A stretch of 64,000 nt of DNA from Spirochaetota bacterium (GTDB taxonomy: Bacteria; Spirochaetota; Spirochaetia; Treponematales; UBA12059): positions 1 to 64,000 of the forward strand of contig JADFDI010000005.1 in assembly GCA_018262985.1 (NCBI GenBank), written 5' to 3'. Position numbers and translations under genes: made by a program. The notes below the pieces were generated by a model. It was not told the DNA's origin, did no database searches, and worked only from the letters and a program-made list of their open reading frames with translations. This document shows, one piece after another, positions 37,368-57,787 of the stretch. The stretch's first letter is position 1; every line of letters starts with the position of its first letter.

Positions 37368-37396
37368 TTGACGCCCCCCGCCCCCGCAGGTATATT
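37368..37396 (+). promoter_or_regulatory. Promoter for the tRNA-Gly locus
   Basis: TTGACG (37368-37373), 17-base C-rich spacer, TATATT (37391-37396). Transcription should start near 37403, just before the first leader repeat. Confidence 0.78.
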
Positions 37397-37406
37397 CACG
37401 AAAGCC

Positions 37407-37487
37407 AAGCATCCTTCGAGCGCCGAACAAGCGCCCCTTGAGCTCTTTGCAAGCATCCTTTGAGCGCCGAACAAGCGCCCCTTGAGC
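37407..37487 (+). repeat. Duplicated 37-bp leader of the tRNA-Gly locus
   Basis: Two 37-base copies with one mismatch (37407-37443, 37451-37487). Each ends in CGCCCCTTGAGC, complementary to GCTCAAGGGGCG found after both the intact tRNA (37554-37565) and the tRNA-like copy (37801-37812). Confidence 0.88.
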
Positions 37488-37556
37488 GACCGTCGTATAC
37501 CGGTATTACCCGAGCTTCCCAAGCTCGTGAAGCGGGTTCGACTCCCGTCGGTCGCT
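37486..37556 (+). tRNA. tRNA-Gly (anticodon CCC)
   Basis: 71 nucleotides. Acceptor GCGACCG (37486-37492) pairs with CGGTCGC (37549-37555), discriminator T. D arm GTA/TAC with GG in the loop, anticodon stem CGAGC/GCTCG around loop TTCCCAA (anticodon CCC), short variable loop, T arm GCGGG-TTCGACT-CCCGT. CCA is not encoded. The acceptor stem continues into the flanks as a perfect palindrome (CGCCCCTTGAGCGACCG with CGGTCGCTCAAGGGGCG) ending in TTTCTGTTT, so the tRNA sits inside a terminator-like hairpin. Confidence 0.92.
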
Positions 37557-37578
37557 CAAGGGGCGTTTCTGTTTACAG

Positions 37579-37803
37579 GCGACCGTCGTACCTCGGGCCG
37601 CTACAGCGGCCCGAGGACCGAAGTCTACCGAGGACGTGAGTCGCGCCAGCGACGAACGGCCATCGGAGACTTCGGATAACCGGTATTACCCGAGCTTCCC
37701 AAGCTCGTGAAGCGGGTTCGTAGCGCAGGTCGCGCGAAGCGCGACCATTACGATCGCTTCCACCCGCTCCGGCGCCGAAGGCGCCGACTTCCCGTCGGTA
37801 GCT
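37579..37803 (+). ncRNA. Expanded tRNA-Gly-like element with structured inserts in the D and T loops
   Basis: A second copy of the same tRNA split in three. The 5' piece GCGACCGTCGTA (37579-37590) is followed by an 88-base insert (37591-37678). Then comes ACCGGTATTACCC with the anticodon arm and T-stem 5' half, identical to the intact gene (37679-37720). A 66-base insert follows (37721-37786), then the T-stem 3' half and acceptor 3' strand (37787-37803). Insert 1 has an 11-bp hairpin (37591-37616) and a 9-bp outer stem (37618-37626 with 37667-37675). Insert 2 has two GAA-loop hairpins (37728-37746, 37770-37786). The acceptor has one mismatch (CGGTAGC). Could be a decaying tRNA invaded by palindromes or a structured RNA; function unknown. 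Confidence 0.75.
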
Positions 37804-37844
37804 CAAGGGGCGTTTCCATACATAGGCGACCGCCTTTCCTCGTC

Positions 37845-57486: not shown

Positions 57487-57516
57487 TTGCACTCCCCGCG
57501 GCCCTCGCGCTATCGT
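57487..57516 (+). promoter_or_regulatory. Possible promoter of the cobalamin uptake operon
   Basis: TTGCAC (57487-57492), 18-base spacer, TATCGT (57511-57516), placing the start a few bases before the riboswitch. Confidence 0.55.
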
Positions 57517-57526
57517 GACGACATAT

Positions 57527-57752
57527 CCTCGGGTGCCCCGACCCGCGCGTTGCGCGGCATGGGGTGAAAAGGGAAAACGGTGAGCGCCTCGCGGCGCGAT
57601 TCCGTTGCAGCCCCCGCTACTGTGAACGGCGACAAGCAGGAACGACACCACTGGACCGGAATCGGTCCGGGAAGGGTTCCTGCGGGATTTCCGGTCGGCT
57701 CGACGCCGATCGGGAGAATCCGCGCCGCGAGCCAGGAGACCTGCCCGTGGAA
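57527..57752 (+). ncRNA. Cobalamin riboswitch
   Basis: Conserved elements in order: GGGTGAAAAGGGAAAACGGTGAG near 57562-57584, GTTGCAGCCCCCGCTACTGT near 57604-57623, ACACCACTGG near 57644-57653, GGGAAGGGTTCC near 57669-57680, and the B12 box GCGAGCCAGGAGACCTGCC (57727-57745). It lies about 40 bases before the btuF-like ATG, so cobalamin should repress the uptake operon. Confidence 0.95.
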
Positions 57753-57787
57753 GCGTTTTCCGACTCTTCGGAGGGAGGAGGAGGACC

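What the first reader, a model, noticed from the sequence alone, without database searches (positions are those of the whole stretch)
37368..37833. tRNA-Gly locus with a second, hypertrophied tRNA copy and nested pairing of its flanks
Seen directly: an intact tRNA-Gly(CCC) is followed by a copy in which the D loop carries an 88-base insert and the T loop a 66-base insert. The interrupted tRNA pieces, including the whole anticodon arm, are unchanged, and both inserts are self-complementary hairpins. Two CGCCCCTTGAGC leaders precede the locus and two GCTCAAGGGGCG tails follow the two copies, so inner and outer stems could nest. The A at 37800 that breaks the second copy's acceptor stem restores a 13-bp pairing with the first leader (37432-37444 with 37800-37812). 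A third GCGACCG fragment lies at 37826. Inference: either palindromic elements invaded a tandem tRNA gene, or this is a structured RNA built on a tRNA scaffold.
Basis: partly seen in the sequence, partly recalled or inferred. Interest (0 to 1): 0.85.

Follow-up and report, generated by a model that had tools for sequence, protein, structure and literature searches.

The report
Spirochete glycine-tRNA genes with hairpin cassettes
In a group of spirochete bacteria, two glycine tRNA genes have repeatedly grown extra folded RNA segments built partly from copies of the tRNA's own strands; the overgrown second tRNA seen here is one such segment, and it may let the RNA choose between alternative folds, though nobody has yet tested whether it does anything.

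Summary
A tRNA-Gly(CCC) with a 13-15 bp extended acceptor helix is followed by a second copy carrying an 88-nt D-loop insert and a 66-nt T-loop insert. It is neither an assembly error nor a private pseudogene. A congener has the same locus with three D-loop units and a third copy, in perfectly nested order. The locus is 97-100% identical between them, against 86-88% for flanking genes.

The wider finding is new. In several families of one spirochete order, the CCC and UCC tRNA-Gly genes are preceded by 89-122-nt cassettes. Each starts with a copy of the tRNA's 5' strand, carries a complement of that strand that changes with it, and has one or two hairpins. A covariance model of cassette bodies finds them only at these genes; nothing in Rfam matches. 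The window's D-loop insert shares a cassette hairpin that occurs nowhere else in these genomes.

Best explanation: an RNA strand-exchange leader in which cassette strands compete with the tRNA's own strands; the window copy is a locked form. Structure and distribution are shown; transcription and function are inferred. Main rival: neutral tandem duplication.

The parts
37368..37396 (+). sigma-70-type promoter TTGACG-17-TATATT
   Evidence: 1 found, 0.1 expected in shuffles; 44/47 identical in congener G002
37407..37487 (+). leader: two 44-nt repeats giving four strands, La 37407-37421, Lb 37429-37444, Lc 37451-37465, Ld 37473-37487; Ld extends the acceptor helix of tRNA 1, Lb pairs trailer 2
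   Evidence: leader 81/81 identical in G002
37486..37557 (+). intact tRNA-Gly(CCC)
37554..37568 (+). trailer 1, pairs with Ld (extended acceptor helix)
   Evidence: I1; helix covaries in 4 genera and two families: 10 of 15 pairs with two-sided changes, 0/500 shuffles
37579..37590 (+). copy 2: tRNA 5' strand (acceptor 5' side, positions 8-9, D-stem GTA)
   Evidence: D6
37591..37616 (+). D-loop insert, hairpin 1 (CCTCGGGCCGC/GCGGCCCGAGG)
   Evidence: (I5)
37617..37678 (+). D-loop insert, hairpin B: outer stem CCGAAGTCT/AGACTTCGG enclosing hairpin GTGAGTCGCG..AGCGACGAAC that is shared with the cassettes at tRNA-Gly(UCC)
   Evidence: (I3); covariation across 4 units, 97.6% paired, 5 pairs with two-sided changes
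37679..37720 (+). copy 2: unchanged tRNA core, rest of D arm to T54-G57
   Evidence: D3, 100%; 42/42 identical to G002
37721..37786 (+). T-loop insert, two hairpins (37727-37746 and 37770-37786)
   Evidence: 68/68 identical to G002 over 37721-37788
37787..37803 (+). copy 2: T-arm 3' side and acceptor 3' strand, with A37800 breaking the acceptor stem
   Evidence: the base is C in both G002 copies
37800..37815 (+). trailer 2, pairs with leader strand Lb (outer shell)
   Evidence: I4, 16 nt, 94%
37826..37832 (+). GCGACCG remnant, probably the start of a lost third copy (G002 retains a third copy)

Best explanation
The locus is one member of a spirochete-specific class of structured extensions of the two tRNA-Gly genes with anticodons CCC and UCC. 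Shown: (i) the primary form is a tandem cassette upstream of the tRNA: [copy of tRNA 5' strand]-hairpin-[complement of that strand]-hairpin-A/T linker, repeated 1-5 times and ending in the intact tRNA. (ii) The complement follows changes in the tRNA's own 5' strand. (iii) In the window's genus, cassette-type units lie inside the D loop of a second tRNA copy, and the strand pair there has changed jointly to other sequences. (iv) An extended acceptor helix and nested leader/trailer shells enclose the copies. Inferred: the region is transcribed as one RNA with two mutually exclusive folds. In fold A the cassette strand pairs with its own complement and the tRNA forms. In fold B the cassette's 5' strand takes the tRNA 3' acceptor strand, the tRNA's own 5' strand is held by the complement, and the cassette loops out of the D arm. 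Fold choice during transcription or processing would set how much tRNA-Gly(NCC) matures. The window's copy 2 would be fold B made permanent.
For: Cassettes at tRNA-Gly in many genera. The genome-wide pattern scan gave 46 hits; the 12 that end in a real tRNA are all tRNA-Gly CCC/UCC, all in spirochetes (L143 by its contig being G110, same order). A covariance model of cassette bodies without tRNA parts: 26 of 30 fetched hits lie just upstream of tRNA-Gly CCC/UCC, 3 are cut by contig ends, 1 is weak; built on one family it also finds members in the window's family. Complement tracks the tRNA strand: ACCGTCGT/ACGACGGT, ACTGTCGT/ACGACAGT, CCAGTCGT/ACGACTGG, GCCGTCGT/ACGACGGC, GCTGTCGT/ACGAAAGC. 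RNAfold of cassette plus tRNA prefers fold B at 8 loci and fold A at 3. D-insert hairpin covaries; extended acceptor helix covaries. Locus 97-100% conserved beside 86-88% flanks. Promoter present.
Against: No expression or processing data. In the UCC loci of two genera (5' strand CCGGTCGT) the complement matches only with a bulge or mismatches. The A/B preference differs between loci and the energy gaps are small (0-7 kcal/mol). Cassette number varies and many relatives have none, so it is not essential. No ligand or sensor is identified. Conservation between congeners could partly reflect gene conversion between tRNA copies.
Confidence: 0.42

Rival explanations
1. Neutral expansion: hairpins and tRNA strand copies make the locus prone to replication slippage and template switching, so it gains and loses tandem duplicates without function. 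The apparent covariation comes from inverted-repeat correction (one arm copied from the other) rather than selection. Copy 2 is a tolerated pseudo-tRNA.
For: Copy number varies from 0 to 5 between close relatives. Copies inside one array are nearly identical. Perfect inverted arms are expected from arm-to-arm correction. Copy 2 is not a callable tRNA.
Against: The locus is more conserved than the flanking protein genes. Cassette architecture persists across families with diverged sequence. It is restricted to two tRNA-Gly genes; the other 40 tRNAs checked in this genome have no 5'-strand copies. Arm correction does not explain the complement tracking a tRNA strand whose sequence is fixed by acceptor pairing.
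Confidence: 0.33
2. The long copy and cassettes are made as separate stable RNAs (tRNA-scaffold small RNAs or tRNA-fragment decoys) acting in trans, for example as sponges for RNase P, glycyl-tRNA synthetase or other RNAs.
For: Very stable independent folds. Each cassette starts with the natural RNase P-type 5' end of the tRNA. The G002 third copy keeps acceptor and T arm but has lost the anticodon arm.
Against: No separate promoter for copy 2. Cassettes are always in cis and next to the tRNA, which favours a cis role.
Confidence: 0.13
3. Mobile palindromic elements (REP/REPIN-like, moved by a Y1/RAYT transposase) or mini integrative elements with a tRNA-Gly target site.
For: RAYT-type genes (PF01797) occur in 8 of 10 genomes tested, and lie directly next to a tRNA-Gly locus in genera g5 (G016, G022) and g9 (G010, G015). 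Cassette boundaries fall at the D-stem/D-loop junction, with the 5' strand regenerated, as integrating elements do.
Against: The D-insert hairpin is found only at the two tRNA-Gly loci, none elsewhere at 2 mismatches or fewer, and cassettes only at tRNA-Gly, so no dispersal. RAYT flanks in the window genome carry a different repeat (GGGACAGAGCT) and no cassette. No integrase was seen beside the arrays.
Confidence: 0.09
4. Assembly error or collapsed repeat.
For: G001 contigs break inside the same locus, so it is hard to assemble.
Against: G002, an independent genome, carries the same anatomy with different unit sequences. A finished chromosome of a cultured species (G031) carries the extended acceptor helix and a cassette.
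Confidence: 0.03

Closest known systems
RNA switches with mutually exclusive pairing (attenuators, T-box riboswitches)
   Same: A leader strand can pair with one of two partners; some tRNA-Gly leaders here have terminators just upstream of the tRNA (L021, L023, L074, L002).
   Different: The output is a tRNA, and the competing strand is a copy of the tRNA's own 5' strand. No Rfam T-box or other family matches.
REP/REPIN palindromes with RAYT transposases
   Same: Short hairpin repeats in bacteria; RAYT genes present and sometimes adjacent.
   Different: Not dispersed; confined to tRNA-Gly; carry tRNA strand copies.
Tandem tRNA gene arrays and tRNA pseudogenes
   Same: Repeated tRNA pieces in tandem; copy 2 keeps tRNA segments.
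   Different: The repeats are 5'-strand-plus-hairpin cassettes with a covarying complement, not degraded whole tRNAs.
Integrative elements using tRNA genes as attachment sites
   Same: A piece of tRNA sequence is duplicated and the tRNA is regenerated.
   Different: Only 89-122 bp, no integrase, and it is the 5' strand, not the 3' part, that is duplicated.
Pre-tRNAs with extended acceptor stems
   Same: Leader and trailer pair to lengthen the acceptor helix.
   Different: Here they are multiplied into nested shells around several tRNA copies.

Membership tests
Functional tRNA (Rfam RF00005), copy 2 | scores as a tRNA by covariance model or ARAGORN | tested here: not met
   Only 37486-37557 is called
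Functional tRNA (Rfam RF00005), copy 2 | intact acceptor, anticodon and T stems | tested here: inconclusive
   Anticodon arm intact; acceptor has the A37800 mismatch in the window but is intact in G002 copies; D and T loops interrupted
REP/REPIN (RAYT-mobilised) | many dispersed extragenic copies | tested here: not met
   D-insert hairpin only at the two tRNA-Gly loci
REP/REPIN (RAYT-mobilised) | flanks a RAYT gene carrying the same palindrome | tested here: not met
   RAYT flanks of five G000 copies read by eye show GGGACAGAGCT-type or other repeats, no cassettes
T-box riboswitch | match to a T-box model and a specifier/antiterminator | tested here: not met
   No Rfam match besides tRNA in 20 loci; only weak unrelated hits below gathering score
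Known Rfam RNA family | gathering-score match over cassette or insert | tested here: not met
Cis-acting RNA switch (works like) | two competing conserved helices | tested here: inconclusive
   Complement covaries with tRNA strand; both folds predicted, depending on locus
Cis-acting RNA switch (works like) | condition-dependent change of tRNA output | not testable with these tools
   Needs probing and tRNA measurements
Integrative element at tRNA | integrase or excision site | tested here: not met
   No recognised protein gene between the acylphosphatase and RlmJ genes in the window, nor between cassettes and tRNA in relatives read

The most novel reading that the evidence does not exclude
A new class of RNA switch whose output is a tRNA: tandem cassettes carry spare copies of the tRNA's 5' strand and matching complements, so that strand exchange decides whether a normal tRNA-Gly or a tRNA with the cassettes looped out of its D arm forms. 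In one genus the looped-out form has been fixed as a separate, nested RNA.
Probability: 0.35. Interest if true: 0.9.

Novelty: new variant of a known kind. Interest (0 to 1): 0.74.

Why it matters
tRNA genes are usually among the plainest genes in a genome; their supply is thought to be set by promoter strength, copy number and processing. A lineage-wide, covarying leader made from the tRNA's own strands, confined to two glycine isoacceptors, would mean that the amount or form of a tRNA can be controlled by its own folding. It would also give a natural case of large inserts tolerated in D and T loops. A cultured, sequenced spirochete (Treponema caldaria H1) carries both elements, so the idea is directly testable.

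Tried and rejected
RAYT/REP mobility: looked promising because RAYT genes sit next to tRNA-Gly in two genera. It was dropped as main reading because the RAYT-associated repeat is GGGACAGAGCT and the cassette hairpin is not dispersed.

T-insert palindrome AGGTCGCGCGAAGCGCGACC: occurs elsewhere in the genome, but only about twice as often as the reversed control at 3 mismatches (13 v 6 in G000), so no element family is claimed.

Known ribozyme, group II domain 5 and integron attC resemblances were considered by eye only; no tool supported them and Rfam gave nothing.

RNAalifold on the second cassette type gave a weak, low-depth consensus; it is not relied on.

Literature searches found no description; only open-access PMC papers were searched.

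Full report
OBSERVATION. tRNA-Gly(CCC) is at 37486-37557. The second copy keeps the 12-nt 5' strand (37579-37590), the 42-nt core with the anticodon arm (37679-37720, 100% identical) and the 3' end. It has 88 nt in the D loop and 66 nt in the T loop. Leaders, trailers and the A37800-T37444 pair are as stated. The RNA fold of 37405-37815 is -226 kcal/mol, z = -11.75 against dinucleotide shuffles, and shows tRNA 1's extended rod inside an outer rod formed by leader Lb and trailer 2. Copy 2 itself is not called as a tRNA.

NEIGHBOURHOOD. The locus lies between an acylphosphatase gene (PF00708, 37062-37355) and a converging RlmJ methyltransferase gene (PF04378, 38687-37845). A promoter TTGACG-17-TATATT is at 37368-37396.

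SAME LOCUS IN RELATIVES. G002 (same genus) has the same genes around it, the same leader (81/81), tRNA 1 (72/72), spacer (21/21), tRNA core (42/42) and T insert (68/68), while the flanking genes are 88.5% and 86.2% identical. Its D loop holds three tandem two-hairpin units instead of one, and a third copy follows that has lost the anticodon arm. Read from the sequence, its three trailers pair with three successive leader strands in perfectly nested order: trailer 1 GCTCAAGGGGCG with Ld, trailer 2 GCTCAAAGGATG with Lc (CATCCTTTGAGC), trailer 3 GCTCAAGGGGCG with Lb. The window looks like the same structure with the trailer-2 to copy-3 part deleted, which leaves the 37826 fragment and joins copy 2 to the outermost shell; this deletion is an inference. 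G001 carries the start and end of the locus on two contigs. G008 has the tRNA with a degenerate trailing piece.

COVARIATION. Outer stem plus inner hairpin of the D-insert hairpin B, four units: 97.6% of cells paired, 5 pairs with two-sided changes, covariation score reached by 0 of 500 shuffles, and slid controls collapse. The extended acceptor helix, seven sequences from four genera in two families including a finished chromosome: 96.2% paired, 10 of 15 pairs with two-sided changes, 0 of 500 shuffles. Shuffles do not keep relatedness, so these are strong but not final. The other 40 tRNAs of the window genome show 0-5 extension pairs, except one Val tRNA with 11; the CCC tRNA-Gly here shows 15.

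THE WIDER FINDING. tRNA-Gly(UCC) in the same genome (G000 C15) is preceded by two tandem cassettes. Each starts with the tRNA's 5' strand GCGCCGGTCGTA (the second copy with one change) and ends with the hairpin ACGTGAGTCGCGGAAGCGACGAAC, the hairpin found in the window's D insert. With up to two mismatches that hairpin occurs in the genomes of this genus only at these two tRNA-Gly loci. Similar cassettes, 89-122 nt, 1-5 copies, precede CCC and/or UCC tRNA-Gly in other genera of the family and in other families. None of 40 other tRNAs in G000 has an exact 5'-strand copy within 600 nt. A pattern scan of 84,980 species genomes gave 46 hits. Only 12 end in a real tRNA; all 12 are tRNA-Gly CCC or UCC. 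Eleven are named spirochetes and the twelfth (L143) has the length and sequence of G110 contig 89, which lies in this order. In a draw of 394 genomes of the order the strict pattern occurs in 13: 5 in the window's family f1, 7 in f4, 1 in f5, 0 in f3.

A covariance model made from nine cassette bodies, without any tRNA part and from one family only, was run over 197 genomes. Of 30 fetched hits 26 lie just upstream of tRNA-Gly CCC or UCC, three run off contig ends, and one is weak (E = 0.004) with no tRNA. It also recovers members in the window's own family (G001, G005, G009). G050 has five units at the CCC gene and three at the UCC gene. Nothing in Rfam matches.

CASSETTE LOGIC. Each cassette contains a complement of the tRNA 5' strand, and the complement follows the tRNA when the latter differs: ACCGTCGT/ACGACGGT, ACTGTCGT/ACGACAGT, CCAGTCGT/ACGACTGG, GCCGTCGT/ACGACGGC, and GCTGTCGT/ACGAAAGC with one mismatch. 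Exceptions are the CCGGTCGT loci of two genera. So two pairings compete. In fold A the cassette strand pairs with its complement and the tRNA with itself. In fold B the cassette strand pairs with the tRNA 3' acceptor strand, and the tRNA 5' strand with the complement, which loops the cassette out of the D arm. RNAfold gives fold B at eight loci and fold A at three, with differences of 0-7 kcal/mol. The window's copy 2 has exactly the fold-B order: 5' strand, hairpin 1, then complement CCGAAGTCT, hairpin 2 and strand AGACTTCGG, then the rest of the tRNA. Its inner strand pair has changed jointly so that it can no longer take part in exchange; G002's three units have three different compensated pairs. 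I read it as a locked fold B. This step is inference.

MIRROR ELEMENTS. Downstream of several tRNA-Gly genes (UCC: L002/L049, L053, L054, L057; CCC: L074) a reverse complement of the tRNA 3' half is followed by a structured body and, at least at the UCC loci, a further 3'-half copy. The T-loop insert may be the corresponding locked form on the 3' side; this was not tested.

MECHANISM AND RIVALS. The best explanation is a cis-acting strand-exchange leader (0.42). Neutral slippage with arm-to-arm correction is the main rival (0.33): it explains copy-number variation but less easily the restriction to two tRNA genes, the cross-family architecture and conservation above flanking genes. Trans-acting scaffold RNAs 0.13, mobile palindromes 0.09, assembly error 0.03. 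No expression data exist here.

TEST ORGANISM. G031, a single contig of 3,239,340 bases, matches the published chromosome length of Treponema (Spirochaeta) caldaria H1 (PMC3739177). It carries the acylphosphatase-linked CCC gene with an extended acceptor helix (the acylphosphatase assignment there is by eye) and a UCC cassette, so the model can be tested in a free-living cultured spirochete.

NOVELTY. No described family fits. I file it as a new variant (structured leaders and switches are a known kind) because function is unproven; if the exchange is shown to control tRNA output it would be categorically new.

Noticed in passing
L051 1843-2373, L052 1858-2409, L074 1472-2002, L021 upstream of the tRNA: RAYT/Y1 transposase genes directly beside tRNA-Gly loci in two genera; RAYT flanks carry a GGGACAGAGCT repeat in many copies.
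   Followed up: partly
L002/L049 downstream of tRNA; L053, L054, L057, L074: Inverted copies of the tRNA 3' half, a structured body and often a further 3'-half copy downstream of tRNA-Gly genes, sometimes with a duplicated terminator.
   Followed up: partly
L021, L023, L074, L002 upstream of tRNA-Gly: Intrinsic-terminator-like hairpins with T8-T9 tails just upstream of the tRNA or first cassette; in L021, L023 and L074 they follow a conserved leader with CCTATTTCAGTCC or a close variant; possible attenuator.
   Followed up: no
G050:C27 5257-5303 and G030:C53 120697-120729: Short 3' pieces of tRNA-Gly 5-7.5 kb from the gene, typical of integrated elements using tRNA-Gly as attachment site.
   Followed up: no
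window 57514-57762: Cobalamin riboswitch, 102 bits.
   Followed up: no
G000 tRNA-Val(CAC): One other tRNA with an 11-pair acceptor extension.
   Followed up: no
G000:C21 around 115600-115900 (L042): Several different GC-rich palindromes in a row with a repeated CTCCCTCAGTTCAA motif.
   Followed up: no
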